DNA from: an uncultured Bacteroidales bacterium
Lineage (GTDB): Bacteria; Bacteroidota; Bacteroidia; Bacteroidales; P3
Direction of reading: 5' to 3'
DNA: 64,000 nucleotides
Assembly (NCBI GenBank): GCA_900315935.1
Contig: ONBB01000002.1
Span: forward strand, 62,001 to 126,000
A program made the position numbers and the translations under genes. The notes beneath the pieces were generated by a model. That model searched no databases. It saw only the letters and a list, made by a program, of their open reading frames with translations, and was not told where the DNA came from. Each line of letters opens with the position of its first letter. Position 1 is the stretch's first letter. Shown here piece by piece: positions 1 to 64,000 of the stretch.

Positions 1-3
1 CAT

Positions 4-1356
4 TCATTCTCCATGCCGCGGGCGCACCAGCTGCGGGGCGTAGCGCCATACCAGCCAGGCACAGAGCAGCAGGGTGAGCACCTCGGCCACGTTGACCGCC
101 CACCAGATGCCGTCAGCTCCCCACAGCAGGGGCAGCAGCCAGACGCAGCCCAGTTCGAACACCATCGAGCGCGCAAAAGCCGCCACGGCACTCACCACAC
201 CGTTCTGCAGCCCCGTGAAGAGCGCCGAGGCAAACATGCTCCAGCCGCAAATGAGGAAACAAAGCATATAGATACGTATCGCCTTGGTGGTCAAGGCGGT
301 GAGGTCGGCATCGTAGCCCACGAAGACATGCGCCAGCGGAGCGCTGAAGAGTTCGGCTACGAGCGTCATTGCAACCCCGGCCACACCTATCACAACCAGC
401 GACTTACGCAGCAGCGACCGCTGTTCGCCCACGTCGCGGGCGCCATAGTGGTAGCCGACGATGGGCGTCAGTGCCAGGTTGTAGCCGATGAAGATGGCCG
501 CGTAGACAAAGGCGATGTACATCAGAATGCCGTAGGCCGCCACGCCGTCCTCGCCGTAGAGGTGCATCAGCTGCAGGTTGTAGCAGATGCTGACGATGCT
601 CATCGAAATACTGCTGACATACTCCGACAGCCCGTTGCTGCAAGCCTTGCCGACATAGGGCCACAGCATCTTCGTGCCCGGCACAAGGCTGAGGGTGCCA
701 CGGTTCAGCCGGCTGGAACCGAAGTAGATGACCGGGAACAACCCGCCCACCACCTGCGACAGCATGGTGGCCCATGCCGCGCCCGCCACACCCCAGCCCA
801 AACCCCATACAAAGAGCGCATCCAGCGCGATATTCACCACACCGCACAACACACTCATCATCGTCCCCAGCTGCGGCCGCTCGGCTGCCATGTAGAACGA
901 CTGGAAGGCCATCTGCATCGCGAAGAAAGGCATGCCGGCCATACAGATGCGGCTGTAGACCACGCACTCGTGCATCATCGGCCCGTCGGCACCCAGCCAG
1001 CGGGCAATGGTCGGGGCGAACACCCCGAAGAGGGCTCCGCTGAGGAACCCCACCACCGCCGTGAAACGCACCAGCATGGTAAACACGCGGTTGGCCTTGC
1101 CCACATACCCCTCGCCCTTGATTTTGGCCACCAGCGCCGCGCCGCCGCTTCCCACCATCAAACCCAGCGCGGCCAGCAGCATGATGGCCGGCCACATCAG
1201 GTTGATGGCCGCCAGGCCCGTCTTGCCCGTAAAACGCGACACAAAAAAGCCGTCCACCATGCTGTAAATCGACGTGATAAGCACCATGGCGACGCTCGGC
1301 AAGGCCGACTTCAGCAGCCGGCGGTAGCCGTAATGTCCTGACAATGCGATTTCCAT
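4..1356 (-). CDS. MATE family efflux transporter
   Basis: A 450-residue polytopic inner-membrane protein of the MATE (multidrug and toxic compound extrusion) family, expected to export organic cations or metabolites by Na+ or H+ antiport. About twelve hydrophobic segments are visible, arranged as two homologous halves. The length is normal for the family. The start at 1356 lies just below a -7 box on the same strand (1385-1392). The stop TGA at 4-6 is followed at once by an ATG at 1-3 on the minus strand, so another gene may begin at the window edge. The substrate cannot be told from sequence. This protein is only distantly like the second MATE protein at 23687-25051. Confidence 0.9.
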   Translation of the reverse strand: MEIALSGHYGYRRLLKSALPSVAMVLITSIYSMVDGFFVSRFTGKTGLAAINLMWPAIMLLAALGLMVGSGGAALVAKIKGEGYVGKANRVFTMLVRFTAVVGFLSGALFGVFAPTIARWLGADGPMMHECVVYSRICMAGMPFFAMQMAFQSFYMAAERPQLGTMMSVLCGVVNIALDALFVWGLGWGVAGAAWATMLSQVVGGLFPVIYFGSSRLNRGTLSLVPGTKMLWPYVGKACSNGLSEYVSSISMSIVSICYNLQLMHLYGEDGVAAYGILMYIAFVYAAIFIGYNLALTPIVGYHYGARDVGEQRSLLRKSLVVIGVAGVAMTLVAELFSAPLAHVFVGYDADLTALTTKAIRIYMLCFLICGWSMFASALFTGLQNGVVSAVAAFARSMVFELGCVWLLPLLWGADGIWWAVNVAEVLTLLLCAWLVWRYAPQLVRPRHGE

Positions 1357-1384
1357 ACCTTTTCCGTGGCAGAAATTCCGAGTG

Positions 1385-1415
1385 CAAAGATACTAAAAAA
1401 TCCGGAGACCGCAAC
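1385..1415 (-). promoter_or_regulatory. Bacteroidota-type promoter of the MATE gene
   Basis: On the minus strand TATCTTTG (1385-1392) matches the Bacteroidota -7 box TAnnTTTG. GTTG lies 19 bases upstream (1412-1415) as a fair -33 element. The box is about 30 bases before the start codon. Confidence 0.6.
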
Positions 1416-6156: not shown

Positions 6157-7491
6157 ATGAAGAAAACCATCCTCGCCCTCCTCCTGCTCGCCGCCAGCGC
6201 CGGCGCCAGCGCCCAGAACGGCACCCTCGTCGACGGTGTCGCCGCCGTGGTGGGGCGCAACATCATCAAGTATTCCGACATCGACCGCTCCGTAGCCCAG
6301 ATGCGTCTCAAGCAGAGCGTCGGCAACGAGGCCGAGACCCGCTGCGCCATCCTCGAGAACCTGGTGCTCGCCCAGCTGATGATCCACAAGGGCGAGGTGG
6401 ACAGTGTCGAGGTGTCGGACGACGACGTGAAGCAGTACGTCGACTACTACCTCAAGAACGACCTCCGCCAGTACGGCTCCAAGGAGGCCCTGCGCGAGGC
6501 CACGGGCTTCGCCTACGACGAGCTCAAGGAGCAGTACGAGCGCATGATACGCAACAACCTCCTCAGCCGCCGCGTGGAATACCAACTCACCGAAGGTGTG
6601 AAGGTTACGCCGGCCGAGGTTACCGAGTTCTTCCACTCGCTGCCCGCCGACAGCCTGCCCATGATGCCCGAGCGCTACGAGCTCTCCGAGATTGTCATCG
6701 AGCCTGCTATCACCGAGGCCGAGCGCGACCGCGTGCGCGCCGAGCTCGCCTCCCTGCGCGAGCGCGTCGTCAAGGGCGAGAAATTCTCCATGCTGGCCAC
6801 CCTCTACTCGCAGGACCCCGGCTCCGCCAAGCAAGGCGGCGAGCTGGGCTTCTTCTCGCGTGGCGAGATGGTGGGCGAGTTCGAGGCCGCCGCCTTCGCG
6901 CTCAAGCCCGGCGAGGTGTCGCCCATCGTCGAGACCAAGTTCGGCTTCCACATCATCCAGCTCATCGAGCGCCGCGGCAACATGCTCAACGCGCGCCACA
7001 TACTGCTGGTACCCAAGGTGTCGTCCGACGACCTGCTGCGCGCCCGCGTCAAGCTCGACAGCCTCGCGGCCGAAATCCGCAACGGCAGCATCTCCTTCGA
7101 GGAGGCCGCACGACTCCACAGCACCGCCGCCAACGCCAAGCAGGGCGGCACCGTCACCAACCCCAACGACGGCAGCGGCCGCCTCGACAAGACCCTCATC
7201 GACGAGCTCTACTACAATGTCGGCATCGCCGGCATGGACGAGGGGCGCATCAGCAACGCCGTGCCCGCCAAGACCGACGAGAACCGCGACGCCTACCGCA
7301 TCGTGCGCCTCAACAAAAAGCATCCCGCCCACAAGGCCAACCTCACCGACGACTACGACAACATCATGAACGCCGCCCTCGCCGCCGCCAAGCAGCGACA
7401 CCTCCAGAAGTGGGCCAAGCGCCAGCTCTCGAACACCTACATCCACCTCGCCGACCCATACAAAGACTGCGTCTTCAAAAACATCCAGTAA
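6157..7491 (+). CDS. surA: SurA-like periplasmic chaperone and peptidyl-prolyl isomerase
   Basis: A 444-residue protein with a clear signal peptide (cut after GASAQ). It has a SurA N-terminal domain (about 25-165) and two parvulin domains (about 170-275 and 280-390). The first has the conserved GGELGFFSRGEM stretch and GFHIIQLIER; the second has KQGGTV. Domain order and length match SurA, which escorts unfolded outer-membrane proteins to the BAM complex. The second parvulin domain looks less conserved and may serve in binding only. The stop codon directly abuts the ATG of moxR. Confidence 0.9.
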   Translation: MKKTILALLLLAASAGASAQNGTLVDGVAAVVGRNIIKYSDIDRSVAQMRLKQSVGNEAETRCAILENLVLAQLMIHKGEVDSVEVSDDDVKQYVDYYLKNDLRQYGSKEALREATGFAYDELKEQYERMIRNNLLSRRVEYQLTEGVKVTPAEVTEFFHSLPADSLPMMPERYELSEIVIEPAITEAERDRVRAELASLRERVVKGEKFSMLATLYSQDPGSAKQGGELGFFSRGEMVGEFEAAAFALKPGEVSPIVETKFGFHIIQLIERRGNMLNARHILLVPKVSSDDLLRARVKLDSLAAEIRNGSISFEEAARLHSTAANAKQGGTVTNPNDGSGRLDKTLIDELYYNVGIAGMDEGRISNAVPAKTDENRDAYRIVRLNKKHPAHKANLTDDYDNIMNAALAAAKQRHLQKWAKRQLSNTYIHLADPYKDCVFKNIQ

Positions 7492-14831: not shown

Positions 14832-16328
14832 TTATTCTTTGACAGAAATACCACACCACTCCAGAAAATCACGTTCGCATCTGCAGAGCACAACTTCCCT
14901 GTTCTCCAAAAATTCCTTATATTTTCTCTCATTAAATAATTGAACAAGGTAACTATTCAGACAATATCTCTCAAGTGCGACCTCCTCTTCTCTCTTTAGC
15001 GCTCTTCTCAATGTATTGAAATCACCCTCATTAATTAACGGTGCTACTCCCGCAGGACTGCCGGTAACCATGGTATAGTTACCTTCGTATCGCTCATTAC
15101 AGCAATGTGTATTGCCTAATCTATGGTGTATCTGACTTATTAACAAAAAGTTTGGTTTAGCGTTTCCCGTTGCAAATGCGAAATCAAGCTTTGGAGGAGC
15201 AACGGGTTGGTAATCATCCCAAGCAGTAGAGTTGGCTCCTTCCGAAAACTTATCAACCCTATCAAATATCAGACGCAGATTGGTCAGAGATCCACTGAGT
15301 TGCTGTGTATAGATCATGTAGAAAATCCATCGAATCAATTCCTTCTTTTTCTCCGCCGATGGATTGGGATTGAGTTTAAAGAAATAACAAATCGGCACCA
15401 CCTGCTTGGCATACGGGAGCAATATTTTGGAAAGTATCCGGCAATCATCATGCAAGAAGCGGGCAGCATAGCCCAAATCCCGTTTCACATCCTCCAGATA
15501 CGGCTTGATATCAATACCTTCCAAATCTTTTAGTTTTTCCATATACCGCTTTCCTGCATATCGGTAGCAGCAGTTGAGGATTTCATCCTCTTTTATTTCT
15601 TGGAAGCCGTATGGCTCCAAAGACAATCTAATCTCGTTCAACAACTCACCCAATACCTGATCATCCTCATTTTTGAACGACCGTGCCTGCAGCATTTCCC
15701 AGTCCGATATTGGCGTACCTTTGGAATTGAGCCTAGTAAATGCCATTCTGGCCTCCTCTAAAGTACCATCATTCATAATAATCTCACCCACCACATACTG
15801 CTGTAGGATTGAATTAAGCTTTCTGGCTCTTTCGATATACAGTTGGGTATCATCCATCTCAACCATTGCCTGGCCTCTCTTCAACAGGCTGAGTGTATCA
15901 TAAATATCACTGACCGGCCATTGCCACAACTTGGGGGTCGCATGAAGGTAGACAAAACTTTCCTTTTCCAAATCATAATACAATCTAAAGTCCTCGCGCT
16001 TTTTCTCGTTTTGCGAAACACACCCATAAAATGTTGTCAAGCGTTGCCTTCCGTCTAAAATGTAATACTCCACCTTCGACCCCTCTGCCGGCCTGTCCGT
16101 CAAAATATCCTTGTAGCGGTATGGCTCGTCCGTTGGTGGCTTCCATAGCAAGATGGTTCCGATAGGATACCCCTTTACTATACTGTCAAAGAAATCCAAT
16201 ATCTGCCGTTGATCCCAGACAAAGTCGCGTTGAAAGACCGGGACAGCGTACCTTCTCGCCGAAACTTTTTCGACAATCTCCCGGAAATATTCCCTGTCTG
16301 GCTTGATGTTTATACCACCATTTCCCAT
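14832..16328 (-). CDS. DUF262 domain protein
   Basis: A 498-residue protein with an N-terminal DUF262 domain. PVFQRDFVWDQRQ (30-42), the stretch YPIGTILLW, and the motif DGRQRLTTF (92-100) match the ParB/Srx-like fold used for NTP hydrolysis in GmrS, SspE and BrxU. The C-terminal half (IHHRLGNTHCCN near 395-406) only faintly recalls the DUF1524 nuclease partner and lacks a clear HNH motif. It is the last gene of a three-gene minus-strand cassette, 3 bases after the TOPRIM-like gene. Base composition is far more AT-rich than the neighbours, which suggests transfer. Confidence 0.85.
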   Translation of the reverse strand: MGNGGINIKPDREYFREIVEKVSARRYAVPVFQRDFVWDQRQILDFFDSIVKGYPIGTILLWKPPTDEPYRYKDILTDRPAEGSKVEYYILDGRQRLTTFYGCVSQNEKKREDFRLYYDLEKESFVYLHATPKLWQWPVSDIYDTLSLLKRGQAMVEMDDTQLYIERARKLNSILQQYVVGEIIMNDGTLEEARMAFTRLNSKGTPISDWEMLQARSFKNEDDQVLGELLNEIRLSLEPYGFQEIKEDEILNCCYRYAGKRYMEKLKDLEGIDIKPYLEDVKRDLGYAARFLHDDCRILSKILLPYAKQVVPICYFFKLNPNPSAEKKKELIRWIFYMIYTQQLSGSLTNLRLIFDRVDKFSEGANSTAWDDYQPVAPPKLDFAFATGNAKPNFLLISQIHHRLGNTHCCNERYEGNYTMVTGSPAGVAPLINEGDFNTLRRALKREEEVALERYCLNSYLVQLFNERKYKEFLENREVVLCRCERDFLEWCGISVKE

Positions 16329-16331
16329 TTG

Positions 16332-17249
16332 TCAAATAATTTTGGTTATTTTCAACAACAACAACTGAAATTCGGACATTCTACGTCTCTCTCCTTCTAT
16401 ATTAACATCAAACTTCGCCAAATAGCGTTCAAAGTCATCCCGTTTCATCCCCTTCGAGATTTTTGCTATCATACCCTTGCTGTAGCCCATCAACACATCT
16501 GACATTTTGCAATAGTCTCTTTCTTGTTGTTGTTCGGGAACCTGCGTCGTATCCACGCCCAATGCGTTATACCTGTCGTTTGTGAAGTAATTCTCTATCG
16601 CCCGCTTGTACCACACATGCCATCGGTACGGTTGCTGGTCTAACGCATAGACCTCCTGTGGATTCACGCGGTCGTACTTCTTTCCACATAGTTTCAACAA
16701 CAACGTATTCTGTTCCTGGCTGTATTTATTGAAGCCATCTGTATCTCTGTCAAAAATAACGACATGTTTTTTCTCAAACACACCATCCCTATAGCATTCC
16801 CTCTCTTCAAGTTCAATCAAGGCCGGATAGACAGACACGCCTCCTGCGTGCAGACAGTGCAAGTCGTGCCTCTTGACCGCTTTGTCAACCATGGCGAAAA
16901 CATTTCCATACACTGGATCTTTCGTGTATGCCTCCGCTATCGTCTTGTACACATTCCACTCGTATGGGCCATTCTCTATCAATAGGCGGGCCCTTTCTTT
17001 GGCCAGCGACACCAATTGCTTGTACCGATAATCCTTCGTCTTGATTATTGTCAAAAACATTCGTTGTTCATCTGTTATTGAGAATGGCTGCGGCTTTTTT
17101 GCTTGCTCTCCCAACAAATCCACTATTTTCCCACGCACATCCTTTCCACAATCAACAAAATGATTGTGTATAAGAATTTCTCGGATCAATATGGTTTTCT
17201 CCATATCACTCCACCCATCAAAAGTCTTATCGTCAAGAACAAAAATCAT
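16332..17249 (-). CDS. TOPRIM/DUF4435-like protein of a defence-type cassette
   Basis: A 305-residue soluble protein without a sure family. The block GGVSVYPAL (136-144), then KHVVIFDRDTDG (161-172) with its acidic DxD-type residues, then RAIENYF (216-222) follow the order of TOPRIM-like domains in OLD and DUF4435 proteins. The expected leading glutamate motif (VEGxxD) is not evident, so this is a tentative reading. It lies between an ATPase gene (8 bases upstream) and a DUF262 gene (3 bases downstream). A nuclease or RNase role is an inference from this context. Confidence 0.55.
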   Translation of the reverse strand: MIFVLDDKTFDGWSDMEKTILIREILIHNHFVDCGKDVRGKIVDLLGEQAKKPQPFSITDEQRMFLTIIKTKDYRYKQLVSLAKERARLLIENGPYEWNVYKTIAEAYTKDPVYGNVFAMVDKAVKRHDLHCLHAGGVSVYPALIELEERECYRDGVFEKKHVVIFDRDTDGFNKYSQEQNTLLLKLCGKKYDRVNPQEVYALDQQPYRWHVWYKRAIENYFTNDRYNALGVDTTQVPEQQQERDYCKMSDVLMGYSKGMIAKISKGMKRDDFERYLAKFDVNIEGERRRMSEFQLLLLKITKII

Positions 17250-17257
17250 CCGTCTCC

Positions 17258-18373
17258 TTACCCTAAAATATCATTCAACAAATCGTATGCTTCGCTAAAA
17301 ACCCCTGTCGGCCACCACGGCAATGTACCGTCGGACTTCACTTCAATAGGTTTAACACTGGCAATACCTGTTTCCTCGTCCATATCCACATAAACTATCG
17401 AAACATCATCTTGAGACAATTCCTTACGTGACACCATACGACGGACAGCCAACACCATGTTCTCTGAGTGCGTTTCAACGACATAACAACAATTCCTCTC
17501 TTTTGCAGTCCTTGCCATGCGCTCCATAACAGGAATCTGGGCAGACGGATGAAGATGAAGTTCGGGCTCTTCTATGATGGCAACACGCTCACTCTCTTGT
17601 ACATAGGTCTGAACGATGATTGGCAACACCTGGGAGATGCCCTGTCCAACCTCTTGAATTCGCACCTTGGATCTCCCTCGTTCTATAACAAAACGGTAGT
17701 CATCTATGGATTTCTCTATTTCGAGGCGCTGCCCGTCCAAATACTTCGCCATCCAATCCGAAACCTTGCGAAACAGTTGGCTATCCGTTCCCAGATAAGA
17801 ATCCAATAGCATTTGATAAGCACTTGCTCCGTCGCTGCTCACGGAAAGGCCACCCTTGGCGTCCGAGGAATAATAGACATCTTTGGCCACAGTTCTCAAT
17901 GGGCAAATATAATCCACCTCAAACTTCAACTTGGAGATGTCCACAGACAATCTTTTTATCATTTCCTGATTCAAGAAGGCACTTGTATCGACTTTTAAAG
18001 CATCCAAATCACTCATCTTGTCATGCACCTCTCCCACCCTTACACAACGTCCTGACACCTTCATCTTCGTATCTTTATCAATATAATATTCAGTCTCCAC
18101 TTCGATACCATCTCCAAAACTTGCGCCTATCATCAAATCCGTAAGATAGTGCCCAAATATAATATCTGTATTTTGATACGCCAACCTAACTTGCGGCAAA
18201 ACCAACGATGGCCACTCATTCACTTTCATGGCTTCTGATATAAGTTGCACCAGACGACACAGGGATGACTTGCCGCTGCTATTGCGCCCCAAAAGCAACG
18301 TAATAGGTCTTAATGGAAGTTCCCCCTGTTCTCTAAATGCCCTATAATTTTTAAAATACACAGACCTTATCAT
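17258..18373 (-). CDS. AAA/ABC-type ATPase (OLD/DUF3696-like)
   Basis: A 371-residue ATPase of the SMC/OLD-like ABC group. Walker A is GRNSSGKSS (29-37), a signature-like GQGISQVLPII lies before Walker B, and IIEEPELHLHP (about 265-275) is the Walker B with catalytic Glu and the typical HLHP. It has the short AAA_15/AAA_21 plan, with no coiled coil of size and no fused nuclease domain. In OLD, Gabija and PARIS defence systems such an ATPase acts with a TOPRIM partner. Here a TOPRIM-like gene follows 8 bases downstream. It is first in the cassette, with a promoter at 18429. Confidence 0.85.
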   Translation of the reverse strand: MIRSVYFKNYRAFREQGELPLRPITLLLGRNSSGKSSLCRLVQLISEAMKVNEWPSLVLPQVRLAYQNTDIIFGHYLTDLMIGASFGDGIEVETEYYIDKDTKMKVSGRCVRVGEVHDKMSDLDALKVDTSAFLNQEMIKRLSVDISKLKFEVDYICPLRTVAKDVYYSSDAKGGLSVSSDGASAYQMLLDSYLGTDSQLFRKVSDWMAKYLDGQRLEIEKSIDDYRFVIERGRSKVRIQEVGQGISQVLPIIVQTYVQESERVAIIEEPELHLHPSAQIPVMERMARTAKERNCCYVVETHSENMVLAVRRMVSRKELSQDDVSIVYVDMDEETGIASVKPIEVKSDGTLPWWPTGVFSEAYDLLNDILG

Positions 18374-33394: not shown

Positions 33395-33683
33395 CACTCG
33401 CTTTCGAGAGAGAAAGCAATAAACAAGAAAAGCATTGCGATATTGTCCTTTGATAGGAATTCGCCAAATTTCACGAGGAGGGATTGAGCATTTATGCTTT
33501 CGCTTGATTGCATATGCTAAACCTGTAGCATATCGTCAGGCGTGAGATATGTTCCACGAGACCCCGTTTCCTCAAAGGTGTTTGGCGATACCTCTATCAA
33601 GACGGACATGAGCACATAACCTCATGCCTTTTCTATTTTTATGATTAACACTCCGTTGGAGGGTCGGACATAATAACAGATGA
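33395..33683 (+). promoter_or_regulatory. Long structured leader of the operon
   Basis: Non-coding stretch of about 290 bases. It holds a perfect 8-bp stem (ATATGCTA 33512-33519 with TAGCATAT 33526-33533), a second small stem (CATGAG/CTCATG) further on, and a possible eight-codon peptide starting at 33494 that ends within the first stem. No known riboswitch was recognised. It may be an attenuator or hold a small RNA. Confidence 0.4.
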
Positions 33684-34490
33684 ATGGAAACATATGTCAC
33701 ATTGCCCAAGTGGCTTGATGATTATATCTTCGGAGAACTGGGAGCCAAATACTGCCGGTCTAATGCTGATATGACTGTCATAGATTGGGACAAGAGCGAT
33801 GTTCTCAATTATCTTGGCACATATTTCCCGCGGAGTTATGCTGAGGCAAGCTGCATAATGGGCGATTATCTTTATGGAAGCAAATCAACTCTTTTGGAGA
33901 AAGAATGTTTGTCCTTTTTGGATTTTGGATGTGGAACTGGCGGCGAAATAGTGGGATTAATCTCACAATTAAAGAAATATAACGAAAAACTTAAAAGCGT
34001 TTCTGTATACGCCTTGGATGGAAATTTCCACGCGCTCAGATTGTGTGAGGCTGTGCTGAAGAAGTTCTCGGAACAGAGTAGTATTAACGTAAAAGTAAAG
34101 CCAATTCCGGTAGTAGTACAAGATTTATATGATATGTCTGTGATTGACAATGTTCTTACTACTGATTTCGATATGGTTATTTCATTCAAGGCTATCTGCG
34201 AATTTGTCACCAAGGAGCGATTTGAGAAAGACAATGCCTACGGGCAGGTTGTCAAGACATTGATGCCAAAACTAAAGCAAGACGGCATATTGTTGTTGGT
34301 GGATGTTACAAGCTACAATGATGTTTCAAACGAGTGGTTGCCTCGCATGATGGATGCAGGTATTCATGCCGTCCCTTGCCGTTTGATTCATCAAAATGAA
34401 GGATATAGTCAACCTATTCATATAACACATAGCCATAAGCTTAACGATGTCAGCAAAGTGGCTTGGAAAATGATAACCCCTAAAAACTAA
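33684..34490 (+). CDS. Class I SAM-dependent methyltransferase
   Basis: A 268-residue cytosolic protein. FLDFGCGTGGE (78-88) is motif I for S-adenosylmethionine; VYALDGNFHALRLCE is the motif II region. The target cannot be read: no NPPY or PCQ motif of adenine or C5-cytosine DNA methyltransferases is seen, so DNA modification is not supported. It is the first gene of an AT-rich operon; the helicase gene follows after 6 bases. Codon use is unlike the GC-rich flanks, which suggests transfer. Confidence 0.75.
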   Translation: METYVTLPKWLDDYIFGELGAKYCRSNADMTVIDWDKSDVLNYLGTYFPRSYAEASCIMGDYLYGSKSTLLEKECLSFLDFGCGTGGEIVGLISQLKKYNEKLKSVSVYALDGNFHALRLCEAVLKKFSEQSSINVKVKPIPVVVQDLYDMSVIDNVLTTDFDMVISFKAICEFVTKERFEKDNAYGQVVKTLMPKLKQDGILLLVDVTSYNDVSNEWLPRMMDAGIHAVPCRLIHQNEGYSQPIHITHSHKLNDVSKVAWKMITPKN

Positions 34491-34496
34491 AATAAT

Positions 34497-35540
34497 ATGT
34501 CCAAGAAAGATTGGATGGTAAAGGAATCGGATTTGGATGATGATCAGTTGCATGTATTCAATGCAATTTTAGATAAATCATGTATTGTAACAGGATGTGC
34601 TGGTAGTGGGAAATCGGTGTTAGCACTCATCAAAGCACAACGTATCCAAAAGGAGAAAGGTAACAATTACCAAATTATCGTGTATACGAAAACATTATGT
34701 AGGTATATGAGTTCGGGAAGAGAATTATTAGGATTAAACAACAATTTTATCTATTATTGGTGGTGGAAAAACCGACTGGATATGCCGTCTGCAGATTATA
34801 CAATCGTGGATGAGATACAAGATTTTACTAACGACGAAATAAAAGAGTTCATCGATTCAACAAATAAGCATTTCTTTTTCTTTGGAGATTCTGCTCAGTC
34901 AATATATAAAGATTTTAAAGATACGATGCGAGTGGAGGATATCTTATATGCATTTCCACACAAAAGAGAAACAACAAAGACATTTGAGTTATATAGAAAT
35001 TACAGGCTGCCTCTTGCCGTGGCTAAAATTTCGCAGTATATTGGAGCAAACCTTCCTCCATTTGTACCTTCAATTTACCAGAGTAAGGAACCCCAGCTGC
35101 CCTATTTGTTGCAATACAGTAATGAAGACAAACAAATAGAAGCAATTGTAAGAATAATAAAAGACAGGAATTTTACAGATGTGGGAATCTTTATGCCGGA
35201 TGGTGAATCAGTAGAACGGCTTGCAAAACTATTTGAACAAAACAATATAAATGTAGAGAAAAGATACAATAATAACAGTGGGTCTATAGATACACTAAAT
35301 TTCAATACTACACTACCTAAACTAATGACATATCATAGTGCTAAGGGTTTGCAATTTGAGACTGTTTTTGTGCCCATGCTTCCTCCTGTGATTCAACATC
35401 GTTCAGCACTATATGTAGCGATGACACGAACCTATCATTATCTTTATTTGATGTATAGTGGCAGTATGCCAGATCTATTTGCTAATGCTCCAAGGGAGGA
35501 TTATCTCACATCAACAGATATTATTGTCGAAGAAAAATAA
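34497..35540 (+). CDS. Compact UvrD/Rep-like (SF1) helicase
   Basis: A 347-residue SF1 ATPase: Walker A GCAGSGKS (33-40), Walker B VDEIQDF (about 98-104), motif III GDSAQSIY, motif IV-like YRNYRLP, motif V TYHSAKGLQFETVFVP and motif VI YVAMTR. It has all core motifs but lacks the 1B/2B inserts of UvrD, being about half its size. Such small helicases are common in defence and mobile cassettes. It is 6 bases after the methyltransferase gene and 8 before the 687-residue gene, so the products probably act together. Confidence 0.85.
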   Translation: MSKKDWMVKESDLDDDQLHVFNAILDKSCIVTGCAGSGKSVLALIKAQRIQKEKGNNYQIIVYTKTLCRYMSSGRELLGLNNNFIYYWWWKNRLDMPSADYTIVDEIQDFTNDEIKEFIDSTNKHFFFFGDSAQSIYKDFKDTMRVEDILYAFPHKRETTKTFELYRNYRLPLAVAKISQYIGANLPPFVPSIYQSKEPQLPYLLQYSNEDKQIEAIVRIIKDRNFTDVGIFMPDGESVERLAKLFEQNNINVEKRYNNNSGSIDTLNFNTTLPKLMTYHSAKGLQFETVFVPMLPPVIQHRSALYVAMTRTYHYLYLMYSGSMPDLFANAPREDYLTSTDIIVEEK

Positions 35541-35548
35541 GCTCCGCC

Positions 35549-37612
35549 ATGGAAAAGAAATTCTATATACCAACATCATCTTTGAATTACAATAACGTAG
35601 TATCCTCGGAAAGCATATCACCTGCGTATTGTTATTCTAAACGGGGTTTTGGGCTGAAAAGATTTGTTGACATATTCGATGGCCCAAAAAGTGATAGAGT
35701 CATTTTGTCTGATCAGTTATTGGGGTTCACACGTCCAGCATCTGACATTGAGGACCACCCAATGCTAATAGAAGTATGCCTGGATGACCTTGAACTCATT
35801 CCTATGGGCACTGGCTTTTATGCTACTCCCCGAACGATATTCATAACTCCATACACGTGTAGGTTTATATTTTTTACGGAGCAAGACAGGCTAGTGACTG
35901 AATCGTTGTCGGATCATAGTTTAGATGTAAAACTATCATCCTTATATATTCCCAGAATGTGTATAGAAAAACCTATTGGCAAATATGATTTTTCTGCAAT
36001 CCAATATGATGGGGCTAAAATACAACCTGTCGACAATATATTGTTCGACGAAAGGTCGAATCGCTTAAAAGGCTTGCTTTTCGGCTACTACATAGGAGCA
36101 ATGCTTTCTACAAATGAGATTGAGGTAGAGAAACTAAAAATACTGCAAGCGGTGTTGAACGAATTCTCCGGTATTATTTCGAGCGGAGAAAAATTCCTTT
36201 CTTCATCCAAAGAAAACACCTTGCGTGAGTTATCAACCAAGTGGAGCCATCTAACACCACTTTATGTAGACTTGGCAGATGCGCAAATCAATGTTCAAAA
36301 ACTCTCGCAAATATTGTCGAAGCATGGAGTTCGGCTCCCAATAGGCAATCTTAGACTTAACACATATCTTCCGTACCTCATAAGTCCTCATAACCAAGGA
36401 GAATCAAACCCTGCAATTGAGTGGATTGAGAATGAAATAGAAAAGCTCTGCAATTCAATGAGGCGAAATGGGAAGAAGCTGAGGCCTGAAGACTGTGAGG
36501 TAGTTACCGACGGGAGCAACGTTGTAAACATTCAAGTCCAGGATCATCCGGAATTAGTTAGGCACTGGCTGAATACACTAATGTTGGATTATACCTGCAC
36601 GCCTCTGGGAGAATACAGCAAAATGGAACTGGCCGATAGAATAACGGATTCAGCAATAGAATTTCTTGGAGAGGCGTGGAAAGAAAGTCAAGAGAGGGTG
36701 TTCTTGAACAAGCTACGAAGACATATCGCTGGAGAAGCCTTTGATGTGAAGTGGGACAATGGAGCATTGTGTTCTGTTGCAGCTGTAGTGCTTCGTGGTG
36801 AAGAATGGGACGCGTTGCTCAATTTTATGCAGCGTAAGGGTATGAGTGATTATCGTCTGGCCTTTGCGATGTATGGTGCATTGACAGGATATGCTAATAT
36901 GACGCGCGATTTCGTTGATATTTTATTTGAAGACAAGGTCTATGGAATGCAGGTGTATATAGAGTTTTATGGGCAGCTGTTCGGGAAAGATTTGAACATA
37001 GAGGCAGTTGCACCAAACAATGATAATTTAACGTCCCCCTATCCGCCAACTGATATATGTGGACCAGAAAAAGATGTCAATCCTGTTGTTGATAGTATTA
37101 TTCAAAAAATTACCTCGTCAGATAAATTCGATAGAAAAAAACATGACAGGTATATTGGGGAAATAAGAGATAGAAATATCGTAGATTGGGATATGGTAAA
37201 AGAATTGAGCGGGAGAAGCAGAGACGGCTGGAAAAGTCTCATCGATGATATCACTAAGCCTTCAAAGAAGAAAAACAGAATGATTCAAGGATCGATCAAC
37301 TTCATTCCCGACAACAATAACATATTCAAATATGACCGAGGTGCTTGGCTTAAAATAGAAGACATTATACAGAATGAAGGTTGGGTTAATTCAAAAGGGA
37401 GAAGTCGTAAGCAGTTAATCATTGAAGATTTGCAATGGTTTCAGGGCAGCGATATGTCGATTGGAGACAATAAGAAAGATATTGAACGCTTTTGCGACAA
37501 ATTCAAGACCCAACCAGACAGAAATGGCAATCAACAAGGTCTATATTATACGCCACAAATACGCCAAGCAATAAAACAACGTCTCCTTTCGTTATATTGC
37601 AACAATGACTGA
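35549..37612 (+). CDS. Large protein of unknown function in the methyltransferase-helicase operon
   Basis: A 687-residue soluble protein with no signal peptide or membrane segment. I do not recognise a domain. The N-terminal 160 residues are beta-rich; the middle (about 170-500) is mostly helical with GLLFGYYIGAMLS and LAFAMYGALTGYANMTRDF as the most hydrophobic stretches; the last 190 residues are charged, with Lys/Asp-rich linkers. Its place between a helicase and a DUF1848 gene (8-base overlap with the latter) makes it the likely core or sensor component of the operon, by inference only. Confidence 0.6.
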   Translation: MEKKFYIPTSSLNYNNVVSSESISPAYCYSKRGFGLKRFVDIFDGPKSDRVILSDQLLGFTRPASDIEDHPMLIEVCLDDLELIPMGTGFYATPRTIFITPYTCRFIFFTEQDRLVTESLSDHSLDVKLSSLYIPRMCIEKPIGKYDFSAIQYDGAKIQPVDNILFDERSNRLKGLLFGYYIGAMLSTNEIEVEKLKILQAVLNEFSGIISSGEKFLSSSKENTLRELSTKWSHLTPLYVDLADAQINVQKLSQILSKHGVRLPIGNLRLNTYLPYLISPHNQGESNPAIEWIENEIEKLCNSMRRNGKKLRPEDCEVVTDGSNVVNIQVQDHPELVRHWLNTLMLDYTCTPLGEYSKMELADRITDSAIEFLGEAWKESQERVFLNKLRRHIAGEAFDVKWDNGALCSVAAVVLRGEEWDALLNFMQRKGMSDYRLAFAMYGALTGYANMTRDFVDILFEDKVYGMQVYIEFYGQLFGKDLNIEAVAPNNDNLTSPYPPTDICGPEKDVNPVVDSIIQKITSSDKFDRKKHDRYIGEIRDRNIVDWDMVKELSGRSRDGWKSLIDDITKPSKKKNRMIQGSINFIPDNNNIFKYDRGAWLKIEDIIQNEGWVNSKGRSRKQLIIEDLQWFQGSDMSIGDNKKDIERFCDKFKTQPDRNGNQQGLYYTPQIRQAIKQRLLSLYCNND

Positions 37613-38666
37613 CGTAGTATCTATAACCCTCGACAACGGCAACACGGTCGAAACCGCGATGCAACCTGTTATTGTGTCGGCCAGTCGGTCAACAGATATT
37701 CCTGCCTTTTATGCAGATTGGTTTATTAATCGCTTGAGAAAGGGATATGTGATATGGAAAAATCCGTTTAATCAGAAGCCAATGTATATCTCGTTCAAGA
37801 CTGTCAGGGTGATTGTGTTTTGGACTAAGAACCCCAAACCATTAATTCCATATCTTCATGAATTGGACGAGTTGGGAATTCATTATTATTTTCAGTTTAC
37901 GTTGAATGATTATGATAAAGAAGGATTTGAGCCATTTGTGCCGAGTGTGGAGCAGCGTGTTGAAACATTCCATCGATTATCAGAATTAATTGGCAAGGAA
38001 CGTGTGATTTGGCGTTTTGACCCATTGATCATTACCCCAAAGTTGTCTCCTCACGAATTACTAAAAAAAGTGTGGAATGTGGGTAATAAATTGAAGGGTT
38101 CAACAGATAAGTTGGTTTTTAGTTTCGTTGATATCAATGGTTATCGAAAGGTTCAGAACAATCTTGTGAAAGAAACGAATCAATTCACCAGGGAAACAAT
38201 TTGCCAATCCGAGTTAACACAGTATCAAATGAACGAGATTGCCGAAGGTCTTTCAAAATGCCGTGATAAATGGGCGACTGAAGGTTGGAAAGTTGAACTT
38301 GCCACATGTGGTGAGCAAGTAGACCTTATCCGTTATGGTATTGCGCATAATCGTTGTATTGATGGCGAATTGATGAAAAAACTATGGCCAGAAGATCAAG
38401 ACTTGCTATACTATCTCTGTTATGGAGAAATGCCAAGTCCAATGTTTGGTATAGATTTTACACAACCAGCATTGAGCCCTGAAAAATTAAAAGATAAAGG
38501 GCAACGTAAAGCGTGTGGTTGCATGATTAGTAAAGATATTGGTATGTATAATTCATGCCTTCACCAATGCGTATATTGTTATGCAAATACAAGTAGGGAG
38601 GTGGTAAAAAGGAATTGGATAAAACACAGTGAAAATCCTCTGGGAGAAATGATTGTTGATGGATAA
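37605..38666 (+). CDS. DUF1848 protein with C-terminal CxxxCxxC cluster motif
   Basis: A 353-residue DUF1848 protein. The N-terminal part (PVIVSASRSTDIPAFYADWF) and FWTKNPKP are family hallmarks and suit a TIM-barrel. Near the C-terminus are KACGC (Cys304, Cys306) and CLHQCVYCYAN (Cys318, Cys322, Cys325). The CxxxCxxC arrangement is that of radical SAM enzymes and looks like spore photoproduct lyase-like members, but sits at the wrong end of the chain, as in a circular permutation. No activity is established for the family. It overlaps the preceding gene by 8 bases. Confidence 0.85.
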   Translation: MTDVVSITLDNGNTVETAMQPVIVSASRSTDIPAFYADWFINRLRKGYVIWKNPFNQKPMYISFKTVRVIVFWTKNPKPLIPYLHELDELGIHYYFQFTLNDYDKEGFEPFVPSVEQRVETFHRLSELIGKERVIWRFDPLIITPKLSPHELLKKVWNVGNKLKGSTDKLVFSFVDINGYRKVQNNLVKETNQFTRETICQSELTQYQMNEIAEGLSKCRDKWATEGWKVELATCGEQVDLIRYGIAHNRCIDGELMKKLWPEDQDLLYYLCYGEMPSPMFGIDFTQPALSPEKLKDKGQRKACGCMISKDIGMYNSCLHQCVYCYANTSREVVKRNWIKHSENPLGEMIVDG

Positions 38667-38690
38667 ACTGAAATAATACGTAAATCTATA

Positions 38691-39542
38691 ATGAAAAAAA
38701 TAGTAATCTTATTATTTGGCATATTGCTTTTTTTTGCTTGCTATACCCCGAAAAAGATTACCCAAGAAAGTAAAAATACCAGATGGCCGGAGTTCTTGCA
38801 GGAATGGGCAGCAGATTATGAGATTGACGATGCACAACACTTGGTTATCATTGGCCAGATTGATACGTTATATAGGCTCGTTGAAGACAGTACATTGGAT
38901 AGTGAACTGCTCTGCTCAAAGTTGTGTCAGCTACAGAACACCATCAGTGATGCCATCGTGTATGACTCCTCGTTGGTGTTTCACCTGATGATGCGGGCTA
39001 CGGCACGCAATCTTTACGGTATTATTTACAACAACCCATGGTTCATTGAATTAGGCTGCAAATGTGAGGTGTTGGAATACCTTTTGATAGACTCAAAATG
39101 GCACACATCTAGTAGAGAGAACTTTGATTTGATGTACACCACGATTATGGGGCTTTCCTGGCAGGCACCAGACCGTTTTGCCAATCTGATGCTCACCAAA
39201 GAAGATGGCAACGAACTTTCAACGGCAATCCTGATTGTGTACAATTACGCCGATACCTCCATCGACAATCTTCAAATATCGTTCACCGACAGCGAGGGTG
39301 CCATCATTGAGCAGCTGACAGAGAAAGACACGTATGCGGAAGTGCCCGATGCCGGCGTAAAGAGAATGATGTTGCCGCCATATCTGGTGATGAATGCATT
39401 GGCAATTGGCGGGACGATTACAATATCGTACGACACCCCCCAAAGCACGTTGGAAATGAAAGGATACCCTCAAATCCATTTCAAGGAACAGATAGAGAAC
39501 TGCCCTCGTTTAAAAGAGGTATTAATCCAAGCGCTGAAATAG
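38691..39542 (+). CDS. Lipoprotein of unknown function
   Basis: A 283-residue protein with a lipoprotein signal (hydrophobic stretch, then LFFAC). The first half is helical, the second half beta-rich with DTSIDNLQISFTDSEG resembling an Ig-like or Big-type strand pattern. No family recognised. It starts 24 bases after the DUF1848 gene, in the same AT-rich island, and is followed by a strong terminator at 39564. It may be a passenger rather than a part of the operon's function. Confidence 0.6.
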   Translation: MKKIVILLFGILLFFACYTPKKITQESKNTRWPEFLQEWAADYEIDDAQHLVIIGQIDTLYRLVEDSTLDSELLCSKLCQLQNTISDAIVYDSSLVFHLMMRATARNLYGIIYNNPWFIELGCKCEVLEYLLIDSKWHTSSRENFDLMYTTIMGLSWQAPDRFANLMLTKEDGNELSTAILIVYNYADTSIDNLQISFTDSEGAIIEQLTEKDTYAEVPDAGVKRMMLPPYLVMNALAIGGTITISYDTPQSTLEMKGYPQIHFKEQIENCPRLKEVLIQALK

Positions 39543-39563
39543 AATAGTTGGGCAAAAGAATAC

Positions 39564-39600
39564 ACCATGCTCACGGTTCACCCTCAACCATGAGCATGGT
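39564..39600 (+). terminator. Intrinsic terminator after the lipoprotein gene
   Basis: ACCATGCTCA (39564-39573) pairs perfectly with TGAGCATGGT (39591-39600), followed by TTTTTC. It ends the island's transcription. Confidence 0.8.
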
Positions 39601-42193: not shown

Positions 42194-42197
42194 ACCC

Positions 42198-54555: not shown

Positions 54556-55416
54556 CTAGCGGCTGCCGAAGTGAGACTTCAGGTCGTTGATTTTCTTCTG
54601 TTTGCGGCGGTCCCAGATGGTGGTGATGAGGCGCTTGGTGGAGAGCGGGAAGTCGCTCTTCATCATCCAGTCGTAGTAGGAGGGTTCCTTCTCGAAAACG
54701 GCCTCGACCGATTCGCCTTTATGCTTGCCGAAGTTGAACACCTCGCGGTGCTCCTTGTCGTAGCCGATATGGCCGACGAGGTCGGCCCACTGGCTGTTGG
54801 CCGTGAAGCGGCTGAGGGCGGCAACGTCGTTGACCACGGGCTGGGTGACGCGGCCGGAGCGGTCCTTGTAGTCGACACCCTGGTAGCGGTCGAGCTGCGC
54901 CTTGAGCACCTCGAAGGTGGCCTCGGTGTCGGCGGCGGCGGAGTGGGCGTGCTCGAGCTCCTTGCCGCAGTAGAAGCGGTAGGCGGCCACGAGGGTGCGC
55001 TGCTCCATCTGATGGAAGATATTCTGCACATCGACGCAATGGCGGCACGAGAGGTCGAAGTCGATGCCGGCGCGGAGGAACTCCTCGACCAGCAGCGGCA
55101 CGTCGAACTTGTTGCTGTTGTAGCCCGCAAGGTCGGAGTCGCCGATGTATTCGAGCAAATCCTGTGCCAACTCGGGGAACGAGGGCTTGTCGGCCACATC
55201 GGCATCGGTGATGCCGTGGACGGCGGTGGTCTGCTCGGGGATGTGGACAGTCTGCCCGTTGGCATCCACGGGGCGGATGCGCTCCACGCGGGTGTCGGTC
55301 TGGCCGCCGGGCATCGCCTTGAGGAGGCAGATTTCTACAATGTGGTCGTGTCCGACCTGGACACCTGTGGTCTCAAGGTCGAAGAAAATGAGCGGTTTAG
55401 AAAGATTGAGTTCCAT
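54556..55416 (-). CDS. DnaQ-like 3'-5' exonuclease
   Basis: A 286-residue DEDDh exonuclease related to the epsilon subunit of DNA polymerase III. FFDLETTG (Asp and Glu of motif I), GYNSNKFDVPLL (motif II) and AHSAAADTEATFEVL (His and Asp of motif III) are intact in the first 190 residues. The C-terminal 90 residues contain FGKHKGESVEAVFEKEPSYYDWMM, the form seen in exodeoxyribonuclease X-like C-termini. It degrades single-stranded DNA ends in repair or proofreading. Confidence 0.9.
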   Translation of the reverse strand: MELNLSKPLIFFDLETTGVQVGHDHIVEICLLKAMPGGQTDTRVERIRPVDANGQTVHIPEQTTAVHGITDADVADKPSFPELAQDLLEYIGDSDLAGYNSNKFDVPLLVEEFLRAGIDFDLSCRHCVDVQNIFHQMEQRTLVAAYRFYCGKELEHAHSAAADTEATFEVLKAQLDRYQGVDYKDRSGRVTQPVVNDVAALSRFTANSQWADLVGHIGYDKEHREVFNFGKHKGESVEAVFEKEPSYYDWMMKSDFPLSTKRLITTIWDRRKQKKINDLKSHFGSR

Positions 55417-60800: not shown

Positions 60801-63800
60801 CTAATTACTTCTGCGCACCGCACGGATGCTCTGTCCAAAGAGGCGGCTGCCGTTGCTGACCCTGCCTGTGGAGTTGTTGAAGTAGGCTATCTCGGCGGTG
60901 GAGGGGGAGTAGGTGCCATAGGAGGCGGTCCAAAAAAGAGCGGTGGTGCCGGCATTTGTTGGATTTATGCCATTCATGTAGCCAGCGTAGGGGAAGAAGA
61001 TGGAGTTACCGTTTTTCTTGCTGGTCAGCCTGCGTCCGGCCACGCCGTTCAAGGTGTCGTTCGTTTGGGTAGTGTTGCTAATCAGTTCGTTCCATTCTGC
61101 AGAGGTGGGTATGTGGGCATCGCTGCCAAGGGTTGTGGTGGCGACGTCGTCCTGGGGCTGCAGGGTGGTGAGGTTGTCGGTGTAGCCGTTGTTTCCGGAG
61201 CTGGCATTATCGCAGTATTTGGTAAGTTTGTTTCCCGCGCCGTTGCAGTGGATGTATGCCGGCCAGGTGTAGGCGCTCTTGGTGGTGATTTCACCCCAGG
61301 CATAGTAGCCTCCGTACTCTTCGGGGCTGTTGGCTCCGATGTTGGCATCGGCCCACAGCATGCGGCTGGGGAGGCCCAGGTCTATCCAGTTGAAGGGGTC
61401 TTCCATGAACTGGGCGGTGTAGGTGGCATTGCCAACTACGGTGACGGTGCGGGGATTTTGGGTGTTGCCGTCGTCCCACTGTTTGAATCGGTAGCCGGGG
61501 GTGGCGGTGGCGCTGATGCTGGCAGCAGTATTGGCCTGGTATACGCCGCCGCCGGAGACGGTGCCCCAAGCGGTGTTGGCGGACTGGACGGCAAGGGTGT
61601 AGCTGCTGGTGTCGTCGCCTATGACGACGAGGGTGTTGCCGGTTACCTTGCCCATGTTTCCGCCGCCGTAGACGTTGCCGCCCACATAGGTGGTGCCGAG
61701 GATGTTGACGTTGGTGTTGCCGGTGATGGTGGCGGAGGTGCCGAAGCCGCCGCCATAAACGGATTTTACGATGCGGCCATTGTAGGTGGTTACACGGAAA
61801 AGACGCCCCGTGGCGTTGTAAGCCCCCATGAAACCGCCGCCGTAGACGTTGCCGTGGATGAGGGGGTTGTTGATATGTGGCGTTCTGGTGTCTTCGCGCC
61901 CAATGATGACGTTGACGTTGCCAGTGACGGAGGTGCCAATGCCGTAGCCGCACCCGAAGACGTTGCCGATGGAGTCGGCACAGCCTGACCTGCCTACGAC
62001 TCCGCCTTCTATGCGGACTGTTATGGGTCCGGCGACGGTGCCGAGGAGGTTGGATCCGCCATGTATACCGCCCACCACCAGACCGTCGCGCATGGTGATG
62101 CTCACCTTTTTGCCTCTCTGCTGGTTGGCTCCGCCGAAGACTTTGCCCTGCACCTTGCCGCCGAGGATCTGTATGGCGGAGGAGTCGCCCATGATGTAGC
62201 CGTAGTTGCCGCCGCCGTAGACGTTGCGCGAGATGTAGGCGCTGTCTGCGACCACGATGTGCGAGTTGTAGATGCGCCCCACAGTGGCATCGTCACCTGT
62301 GGCGCCGCTGTTTCCACTGCCGGCGCCGAAGATGTTGCCTCCCTTGGAGTAGTAAAAGGGGGTGTCGTGTATGGTGTCGTGTTGGAGACGGGCATTGCCG
62401 CCAAAATAGATGTATGAGTTTCCATAGGTTTCGCCCCGGATGGTGAGCAGTCCATTGCATCCGCCAGCTATCCAACAGCTGTGGTCGCCGCCGGTGAAGA
62501 CCATCCTGCGGTTGCCGACGGCATTTGCCTGGGCTGCAGCCCCCCATGCGCCTCGGGTGATGGTGCCGCCTTTGATGTATAGCCGGACCTGGGTGGCGAA
62601 GGTGTCTATGGCAACGTTGATCTTTTCTGTTGGATCAATCCCCCCGGCAATGGTTTCCAGCTGACCGCCCTCCATCAGTATCACACGTGCCCCCATGTAC
62701 CCCCACGAGGTGCTGGCGGTAAGATAGAAGCCGGCATGAGCTGTGGCAGTAGCTCCCGGAGCCACTTGGGCACCGAATCTTCCATATCTGACAGTGCCAC
62801 TTTTCACCACATAATTGAACATTCGGGTGTCTTTGTTCACAGGGTCGAGGAAGTCCACCCTATCGCCGCCATAGGGGGCGCTGACATGCAACTTGCCATT
62901 GTCGCCCAAGCTGCGGTCATAGTCGCTGCCCAGTACCATATCTAAACTTATCTTTCCCCGTATGTTCAGGTGATTGGCGTCAGAGCCCGCCCCTACTGCC
63001 CACATCGACACATTGCTGCCTCGGTATTCCAGGAAGCTGCCACTTTCCAAACGGTATGATATCTGCTTCGGATGCGGGTCGCTGGCCAATGTATCGGCCA
63101 GCGAAATGCCTACAAGGGGGGCTCTGTTCAGGAAGAAGTCGCACGAGTCGTCAGGCAGACACATGCGTCCATATACAATTTTCCCCGCCTTGATGTCCTT
63201 GTTTCCGGTAATTATCGGCTCATTGGCCTCTGCCCGGCAGTATAGGGTATCCAACATAGCATCGGAGGCATGGGCTCTCCAGAGCCTGAAGGGCCACTCC
63301 TTGTACCCGAGCACTTGTGCAACGCTCGCGTCATAGTACTTTCCAGGGTTGTTGGTAGTGAAATTATACGGCCATATCCATACTATTCCCTCCTGATTGG
63401 CGGGTCCGTAATCGCCTCTCAACACGAAAAGATGGTATATCCGCCTGCGATGGGGCGAGAGCTTGATGTATTCAAACTTGGTTTCCGTCCTGTCGAAAAA
63501 CAGCGACTCCCCGGATACATAGCCGGTAAACGTCCCGGTGGTGTCTTTGGTGTACGATTGGGTCCCGTTTCTCCACACCACTCCATCGGAGAATACTTGA
63601 GGGACAGGGACGCCTGTGTTTGTGTTGTTGACACGCACCCTCGTCAGAGAACGTATGGTACAGCCTCCGCCTGGGGTGCCAAACGAGGGCACCTCGGTCA
63701 GCAACACCGGGGAGACACCGTCGGTACCGTCGGGATAGACCGAGGTCATGGTGAAGCCCTTGCCTATGCCTGCACGGTCGCGCTGCCACAGGCAGTTGTC

Positions 63801-64000
63801 GCACGTGTACACCACGAAGTTGCGCTCATAGGCATTCCTGCCGGTGGCATACTGCCCTGTGGGAGACCGGTCGAAGGCAACCAGTGTCGGGTAGACAAAC
63901 GCGCGTGCCCAAATAGCCTCAAACACCACATCCATACCGTATTCGGCAGCGGGGAGGAAATAGACTGTATCCTCGGCATCAAGCATGGCACCCACAGCTA
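60801..64000 (-). CDS. Large repetitive surface protein (partial, 5' end outside window)
   Basis: More than 1,065 residues; the frame is open to the window edge and no signal peptide is seen, so the start lies beyond 64000. The first 450 residues have no recognised domain. Residues about 500-800 are Gly-rich beta-helix-like repeats (NVYGGGNMGKVTGNT, KSVYGGGFGTSATITGNTNV). Next comes an InlB/Flg_new-type B repeat (GTVSGGGVYQ...GYRFKQWDDGNTQNPRTV). The last 190 residues are a FISUMP-like domain (WIDLGLPSRMLWADANIGANSPEEYGG) common on Bacteroidales surface proteins. No T9SS C-terminal sorting domain is evident. It ends in a strong terminator at 60724. Confidence 0.75.
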   Translation of the reverse strand, partial: AVGAMLDAEDTVYFLPAAEYGMDVVFEAIWARAFVYPTLVAFDRSPTGQYATGRNAYERNFVVYTCDNCLWQRDRAGIGKGFTMTSVYPDGTDGVSPVLLTEVPSFGTPGGGCTIRSLTRVRVNNTNTGVPVPQVFSDGVVWRNGTQSYTKDTTGTFTGYVSGESLFFDRTETKFEYIKLSPHRRRIYHLFVLRGDYGPANQEGIVWIWPYNFTTNNPGKYYDASVAQVLGYKEWPFRLWRAHASDAMLDTLYCRAEANEPIITGNKDIKAGKIVYGRMCLPDDSCDFFLNRAPLVGISLADTLASDPHPKQISYRLESGSFLEYRGSNVSMWAVGAGSDANHLNIRGKISLDMVLGSDYDRSLGDNGKLHVSAPYGGDRVDFLDPVNKDTRMFNYVVKSGTVRYGRFGAQVAPGATATAHAGFYLTASTSWGYMGARVILMEGGQLETIAGGIDPTEKINVAIDTFATQVRLYIKGGTITRGAWGAAAQANAVGNRRMVFTGGDHSCWIAGGCNGLLTIRGETYGNSYIYFGGNARLQHDTIHDTPFYYSKGGNIFGAGSGNSGATGDDATVGRIYNSHIVVADSAYISRNVYGGGNYGYIMGDSSAIQILGGKVQGKVFGGANQQRGKKVSITMRDGLVVGGIHGGSNLLGTVAGPITVRIEGGVVGRSGCADSIGNVFGCGYGIGTSVTGNVNVIIGREDTRTPHINNPLIHGNVYGGGFMGAYNATGRLFRVTTYNGRIVKSVYGGGFGTSATITGNTNVNILGTTYVGGNVYGGGNMGKVTGNTLVVIGDDTSSYTLAVQSANTAWGTVSGGGVYQANTAASISATATPGYRFKQWDDGNTQNPRTVTVVGNATYTAQFMEDPFNWIDLGLPSRMLWADANIGANSPEEYGGYYAWGEITTKSAYTWPAYIHCNGAGNKLTKYCDNASSGNNGYTDNLTTLQPQDDVATTTLGSDAHIPTSAEWNELISNTTQTNDTLNGVAGRRLTSKKNGNSIFFPYAGYMNGINPTNAGTTALFWTASYGTYSPSTAEIAYFNNSTGRVSNGSRLFGQSIRAVRRSN

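What the first reader, a model, noticed from the sequence alone, without database searches (positions are those of the whole stretch)
1..64000. Near absence of GTCAC/GTGAC, with GTTAC/GTAAC common
Reading both strands by eye, I found only about ten GTSAC sites in 64 kb (near 7153, 17429, 31675, 33697, 34207, 35892, 54846, 61439, 61923, 62288). More than 100 would be expected at this base composition. Four are in the two AT-rich islands. GTTAC and GTAAC are frequent: Val-Thr is nearly always GTT ACC or GTA ACC although Val is GTC or GTG elsewhere. GTCAC to GTTAC and GTGAC to GTAAC are the changes expected from deamination of a methylated central C. This suggests a resident GTSAC cytosine methyltransferase, or restriction avoidance.
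Basis: partly seen in the sequence, partly recalled or inferred. Interest (0 to 1): 0.85.

Follow-up and report, generated by a model that had tools for sequence, protein, structure and literature searches.

The report
Genome avoids its own restriction site
This gut bacterium has lost most copies of one five-letter DNA word, most likely because it carries a DNA-cutting defence enzyme that targets that word; the effect is well known in bacteria, and here the missing word led to the enzyme's genes.

Summary
The window has exactly 10 GTSAC sites against 59 expected, and the shortage is genome-wide (130 against 508 in 458 kb), in every reading frame. In 42 same-genus relatives without the enzyme GTSAC is normal overall (1116 against 1174). 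The genome, outside the window, carries a Tsp45I-type restriction-modification pair: a full-length PF06300 "Tsp45I" endonuclease (E = 7e-111) beside an amino-methyltransferase. Tsp45I cuts GTSAC (recalled); a GTSAC methylase of Helicobacter pylori is an m6A enzyme of the same class (PMC3936762). The first, a C5 methylase with deamination, is not: transversions at the site rose as much as transitions. Four of six same-genus holders (this one included, a doubtful seventh set aside) are depleted; two are not, which fits recent gain. Against a strict link, GTSAC is also low in other genera of the family without the pair (16 stretches, 72 against 157). The phenomenon is well described (Rusinov 2015); this is a new member of a known kind.

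The parts
7153..7157 (+). residual GTSAC site (GTCAC)
   Evidence: exact count
17428..17432 (+). residual GTSAC site (GTGAC), inside AT-rich island 1
31675..31679 (+). residual GTSAC site (GTGAC)
33696..33700 (+). residual GTSAC site (GTCAC), inside AT-rich island 2
34206..34210 (+). residual GTSAC site (GTCAC), inside AT-rich island 2
35894..35898 (+). residual GTSAC site (GTGAC), inside AT-rich island 2
54845..54849 (+). residual GTSAC site (GTGAC)
61441..61445 (+). residual GTSAC site (GTGAC)
61924..61928 (+). residual GTSAC site (GTGAC)
62292..62296 (+). residual GTSAC site (GTCAC)
14832..18373 (.). AT-rich island 1; pooled with island 2 it has 4 GTSAC against 7.2 expected, the rest of the window 6 against 52.8, as expected of later-arrived DNA (small numbers)
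33601..39600 (.). AT-rich island 2 (see island 1)

Best explanation
The genome carries a resident orthodox Type II restriction-modification pair of the Tsp45I kind, outside the window on contig C14 (methyltransferase 42,195-43,211, endonuclease 43,213-43,992, minus strand). The endonuclease cuts GTSAC where it is unmethylated, and the methyltransferase protects the cell's own sites by methylating, most likely, the adenine (GTS-m6A-C). Protection is sometimes incomplete, so each site costs the cell a little, and over time tolerated changes that destroy a site are kept, whichever base they hit. Shown: the depletion, its presence in all frames, its absence in 42 sampled same-genus relatives without the pair, the full-length endonuclease and adjacent methyltransferase, the short junction in relatives, and the like rise of transitions and transversions. 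Inferred: the enzyme's specificity (from its family), its activity, the m6A mark and the selective cause.
For: Depletion: 10/58.9 in the window, 130/508.5 in 458 kb; every frame 0.08-0.24 of the synonymous-shuffle mean, and 28/79.9 outside the called ORFs. GTSAC is the most species-specific depleted five-mer against 42 same-genus non-holders (own 120/527.9, genus 1116/1166.4, z -13.1, next z -6.4). Enzyme: PF06300 Tsp45I, profile positions 1-260 of 260, E 7.3e-111, 370 bits against a cut-off of 25. One base away lies a 338-aa PF01555 methyltransferase with DPPF before GSGTT, the beta-class order (recalled); M.Hpy99II of H. pylori J99, which methylates GTSAC, is m6A and beta (PMC3936762, passages). 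Association in the genus: 7 of 120 genomes hold PF06300. G000, G109, G158 and G126 show 0.26, 0.24, 0.29 and 0.28, each with GTSAC the lowest five-mer; 0 of 42 non-holders rank it among the lowest four. With G161 set aside, 4 of 6 holders against 0 of 42, Fisher p 8e-5, phylogeny not corrected. G126's endonuclease is 52% identical to ours, so probably a separate gain. The one other-genus holder counted, G022, has 4/11.9, again the lowest. Junction: the crt-hbd gap is 1903 bp here and 1838 in holder G109, but 22-153 bp in 17 of 17 non-holders in which both genes were found; the 18th, G106, had no match. Mechanism: transitions 14/25 against 43/627 and S-to-W transversions 8/25 against 24/627 at GTS|AC of G065.
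Against: Two intact-looking holders are not depleted: G128 80/80, G119 119/107; recent gain is an assumption. Sixteen non-holders from other genera of the family are low, 72/156.9 pooled, several with GTSAC among the lowest five-mers, so depletion also occurs without this pair. Same-genus non-holder G115 is at 11/22 and sister species G065 at 573/731.8 = 0.78. G000 and G109 share the insertion site and may not be independent. No methylation or cleavage data. No characterised Tsp45I sequence was compared directly; the specificity rests on the Pfam family name. Methylase families other than PF00145, PF01555 and PF02086 were not searched.
Confidence: 0.91

Rival explanations
1. A resident C5 methylase marks a C in GTSAC and the sites are lost by deamination (GTCAC to GTTAC, GTGAC to GTAAC), with no need for selection.
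For: Five C5 methylases are in the genome. GTTAC/GTAAC are in excess, 72/45.0 in the window and 631/419 in the sample. The GTT share among GTT+GTA before AC is 0.55, between the deamination prediction (0.62) and plain usage (0.45).
Against: S-to-W transversions rose as much as transitions (8/25 against 24/627). Sites are scarce in frames where the central change alters the protein: GTCAC frame 1 8/48.9, frame 2 2/15.4, GTGAC frame 1 19/111.7, while GTCAT and GTGAT in frame 1 are not clearly raised (21/20.0, 34/28.5). The C20 island with four of the C5 methylases is not clearly depleted itself (11/14.1). The C9 methylase has no close ortholog in 58 relatives (best long match 50% over 212 residues); depleted G126 was among them, depleted G109 and G158 were not.
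Confidence: 0.03
2. Codon-pair or translational bias (Val-Thr) removes the word.
For: The most visible effect is at Val-Thr pairs.
Against: All frames and both orientations are affected, as is DNA outside the called ORFs; 42 same-genus relatives have normal GTSAC overall (1116/1174).
Confidence: 0.01
3. The avoidance was imposed by another GTSAC-cutting system, now lost or not detected, or by restriction in other cells, and the resident Tsp45I-type pair is incidental.
For: Non-holders in other genera of the family are also low in GTSAC (72/157); G128 and G119 hold the pair without avoidance. Traces of lost systems are reported as common (PMC4687349, abstract and passages).
Against: Within the genus strong depletion was seen only in holders (4 of 6 against 0 of 42), one of them with a divergent, 52% identical endonuclease.
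Confidence: 0.05

Closest known systems
Tsp45I restriction-modification (Pfam PF06300)
   Same: Endonuclease matches profile positions 1-260 of 260; adjacent amino-methyltransferase; host is poor in GTSAC.
   Different: A Bacteroidota copy at a crt-hbd gene junction; the Thermus system is plasmid-borne (recalled). Cleavage and methylation not shown here.
M.Hpy99II of Helicobacter pylori J99 (GTSAC, m6A, beta; PMC3936762, passages)
   Same: Methyltransferase class and motif order; J99 has 210 sites in the paper's table.
   Different: No direct sequence comparison was made; m6A is not shown here.
Avoidance of orthodox Type II sites (Rusinov et al. 2015, PMC4687349, abstract and passages)
   Same: Resident pair with its site depleted; about half of cases showing it; holders without depletion read as recent gains; depletion without a system read as traces of lost ones.
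   Different: Nothing of principle; this is one more genome, resolved to frames and substitution directions.

Membership tests
Tsp45I-type R-M (PF06300) | full-length match of the endonuclease to the family profile | tested here: met
   residues 2-259 on profile 1-260 of 260, E 7.3e-111
Tsp45I-type R-M (PF06300) | conserved PD-(D/E)xK-like residues intact | tested here: met
   D174 and E187-A-K189 are invariant in the 13 proteins aligned, of 14 family holders (G020's fragment left out); that they are catalytic is inference
Tsp45I-type R-M (PF06300) | methyltransferase adjacent | tested here: met
   PF01555 gene one base away; the 14 family genomes with a PF06300 match are the same 14 whose best match to this methyltransferase is 63% identical or more
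Tsp45I-type R-M (PF06300) | cleaves GTSAC | not testable with these tools
   inferred from the family name and the depletion
GTSAC m6A methyltransferase (M.Hpy99II kind) | beta-class amino-methyltransferase with DPPF/DPPY motif | tested here: met
   DPPF at residue 33, GSGTT at 290; PF01555 E 1e-36; the reading of motif order as beta class is recalled
GTSAC m6A methyltransferase (M.Hpy99II kind) | methylates A of GTSAC | not testable with these tools
   needs sequencing with modification calls
Orthodox Type II site avoidance | site depleted in holder, not in close non-holders | tested here: met
   exceptions: holders G128 and G119 not depleted, and other-genera non-holders depleted
C5 methylase with deamination at GTSAC | losses are C-to-T only | tested here: not met
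   S-to-W transversions 8/25 against 24/627
C5 methylase with deamination at GTSAC | a C5 methylase specific for GTSAC | not testable with these tools
   five C5 methylases present, specificity unknown

The most novel reading that the evidence does not exclude
The pair has sat at the crt-hbd junction since before this species and G109 split, and was lost in closer relatives such as G065, whose partial depletion (0.78) and longest empty junction (153 bp) would be the trace of that loss. The genus would then hold every stage of gain, depletion, loss and recovery of one site, and would serve as a clock for restriction avoidance.
Probability: 0.25. Interest if true: 0.45.

Novelty: new member of a known kind. 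Interest (0 to 1): 0.33.

Why it matters
It shows that reading a raw window for missing words can point to a specific enzyme gene elsewhere in the genome, and it separates avoidance from methyl-C deamination with a simple substitution test. The genus, with holders that are depleted, holders that are not, and relatives with the short junction, is a good natural series for timing restriction avoidance.

Tried and rejected
C5 methylases first: PF00145 gave five. The C9 one, next to an HNH gene, was sought in 59 genus genomes, own included, and had no close ortholog; the C20 island with four was not clearly depleted. Both were dropped once the Tsp45I pair was found. Val-codon ratios as a deamination test were equivocal after context matching, so I do not lean on them; the raw ratio had looked stronger than it is.

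Cross-phylum check: the best 80 of 385 loci encoding a relative of the endonuclease were fetched from genome contigs. Of the other 76, 60 were 10 kb or longer (16 dropped); GTSAC was the lowest of all five-mers in 24 and among the lowest four in 38. I give this little weight: non-holders of other genera in the family look similar (72/157), and I could not obtain a matched control. G161 was set aside: its 8.9-kb contig with the pair is 97.8% identical over 8,044 bp to G158's and is poor in GTSAC (1/7), unlike its two other contigs counted, so it may be mis-binned. With it kept, depleted holders are 4 of 7. No relative of the endonuclease in the phage collection; two distant full-length ones in plasmids, 42% and 32% identical. 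PDB: none for the endonuclease.

Limits: gene calls are my own (288 ORFs, 339,720 of 438,078 bases; the 'non-coding' remainder, 98,923 bases, will hold some missed genes). The relatives' stretches are 43 of the 50 same-genus relatives listed (one, G119, a holder) and 17 from other genera (one, G022, a holder). Only 48 of 288 own genes had an ortholog in the fetched pieces, 44 in G065. Methylase families other than PF00145, PF01555 and PF02086 were not searched.

Full report
OBSERVATION. The window holds 4 GTCAC and 6 GTGAC, ten sites, against 58.9 expected under a maximal-order Markov model. GTTAC/GTAAC are raised (72 against 45.0). In a wider sample (20 stretches, 394,078 bases, plus the window) GTSAC is 130 against 508.5. 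By observed/expected it is the lowest five-mer in the window and in the sample.

NOT CODON BIAS. In 288 ORFs of my own calling (the C20 stretch L006 left out), synonymous shuffling within genes gave GTCAC 0.24, 0.16 and 0.13 of expectation in the three frames and GTGAC 0.08 and 0.17 in the two frames where it can occur. DNA outside the called ORFs, which will include some missed genes, shows 28 against 79.9. CTCAG/CTGAG is also low in all frames, less strongly.

SPECIES-SPECIFIC. Stretches of up to 20 kb from 43 same-genus relatives, drawn around the prolyl-tRNA synthetase gene found, were counted. The 42 without the enzyme pool to 1116 against 1174, median 0.96, lowest 0.51 (G115), and none has GTSAC among its four lowest five-mers. 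Against them GTSAC is the most specifically depleted five-mer of this genome, z -13.1; the next, GGCCC/GGGCC, is at z -6.4.

THE ENZYME. The genome (2,294,010 bases, 31 contigs) has five C5 methylases, two PF01555 methylases and one strong PF02086 match, Dam-type by NCBIfam. One PF01555 methylase, on contig C14, lies one base from a 259-aa gene that matches Pfam PF06300 'Tsp45I type II restriction enzyme' over its whole length, E 7.3e-111. Tsp45I cuts GTSAC (recalled). The methylase has DPPF at residue 33 and GSGTT at 290, the order of the beta class (recalled). A GTSAC methylase of H. pylori J99, M.Hpy99II, is m6A and beta (PMC3936762, passages).

DISTRIBUTION. PF06300 is in 7 of 120 genus genomes and 14 of 190 in the family. 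In the family, the methylase at 63% identity or more is in the same 14; in one of them, G020, the endonuclease match covers only 46 profile positions. Same-genus holders: G000 125/487, G109 17/70, G158 18/62, G126 8/28, against G128 80/80, G119 119/107 and G161 34/41 (G161's pair-bearing contig may be mis-binned). Sample sizes range from 26 kb (G161) and 30 kb (G126) to 434 kb (G000). The conserved residues of the endonuclease are intact in the depleted and undepleted alike. Recent gain is the reading offered in print for undepleted holders (PMC4687349, abstract and passages).

INSERTION SITE. The pair lies between a 3-hydroxyacyl-CoA dehydrogenase gene and an enoyl-CoA hydratase gene (names from reading the proteins; hbd and crt below). 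The matched spans of the two genes are 1903 bp apart here and 1838 in holder G109, and 22 to 153 bp apart in the 17 non-holders in which both were found; G106 of the 20 searched had neither at the cut-off. G065 is the closest at this locus (100% and 97% identity) and has the longest gap of the non-holders, 153 bp. Junctions of G158, G128, G126 and G119 were not among the 20; in their 20-kb stretches (14.6 kb for G126) neither flank gene was found near the pair at 45% identity or more, so their sites differ.

HOW SITES ARE LOST. With G065 as reference (44 of 288 own genes had a G065 ortholog in the fetched stretches), Val codons GTC or GTG before AC became GTT or GTA by transition in 14 of 25 and by transversion in 8 of 25. 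Before any other dinucleotide the figures are 43 and 24 of 627 (p 7e-10 and 8e-6). Both rise about eightfold. Deamination predicts only the first. Changes from one S to the other were 0 of 25 and 87 of 627. Sites whose other bases had changed were left out (8 and 173). These are pairwise comparisons, not polarised by an outgroup. The ratio of GTT to GTA genome-wide is equivocal.

YOUNG DNA. The two AT-rich islands of the window hold 4 sites against 7.2 expected, the rest 6 against 52.8; the C20 island with four C5 methylases holds 11 against 14.1, but its flanks on that stretch 4 against 4.7 as well. This fits later arrival only loosely, the numbers being small.

AGAINST A SIMPLE STORY. Sixteen non-holders from other genera of the family pool to 72 against 156.9, and in several GTSAC is among the lowest five-mers. 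So depletion also exists without this pair, whether through a lost pair, another GTSAC enzyme or incomplete genomes. For that reason the 60 cross-phylum holder loci (24 with GTSAC lowest) are only suggestive; the matched control was not obtainable.

VERDICT. The best explanation is avoidance of the site of a resident Tsp45I-type pair with an adenine methylase; methylation and cleavage are untested. The kind of phenomenon is well known.

Noticed in passing
genome sample (window plus L007-L025, L146, L147): AGGCCT is the most species-specific depleted six-mer (25/165.8 here, 215/267.7 in 42 genus non-holders), which suggests a second resident or past restriction system with that site. GTTAAC is low too (4/22.4).
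   Followed up: no
L006:1434-15791 (G000:C20): Island with four C5 methylases, a gene read by eye as a Vsr-type mismatch endonuclease, and a McrBC-like pair (labels recalled, not tested).
   Followed up: partly
L007:8361-10642 (G000:C9): A C5 methylase next to an HNH gene (PF13391; weak, far below cut-off match to a phosphorothioate-DNA restriction model); no close ortholog of the methylase in 58 other genus genomes.
   Followed up: partly
same-genus stretches L026-L068: GATC and CTAG are low in most genus members counted, so their depletion here is not special to this species; CTCAG/CTGAG is low here (0.49) and very low in G115 (4/23).
   Followed up: no
window 14832-18373 and 33601-39600: AT-rich islands with genes that look like defence or mobile cargo by eye: a DUF262-like protein and an ATPase in the first, a helicase-like protein in the second (labels recalled).
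   Followed up: no
L137 (G161:C17): 8.9-kb contig 97.8% identical to G158's over 8,044 bp, with few GTSAC unlike the two other G161 contigs counted: possible mis-binning in that genome.
   Followed up: partly
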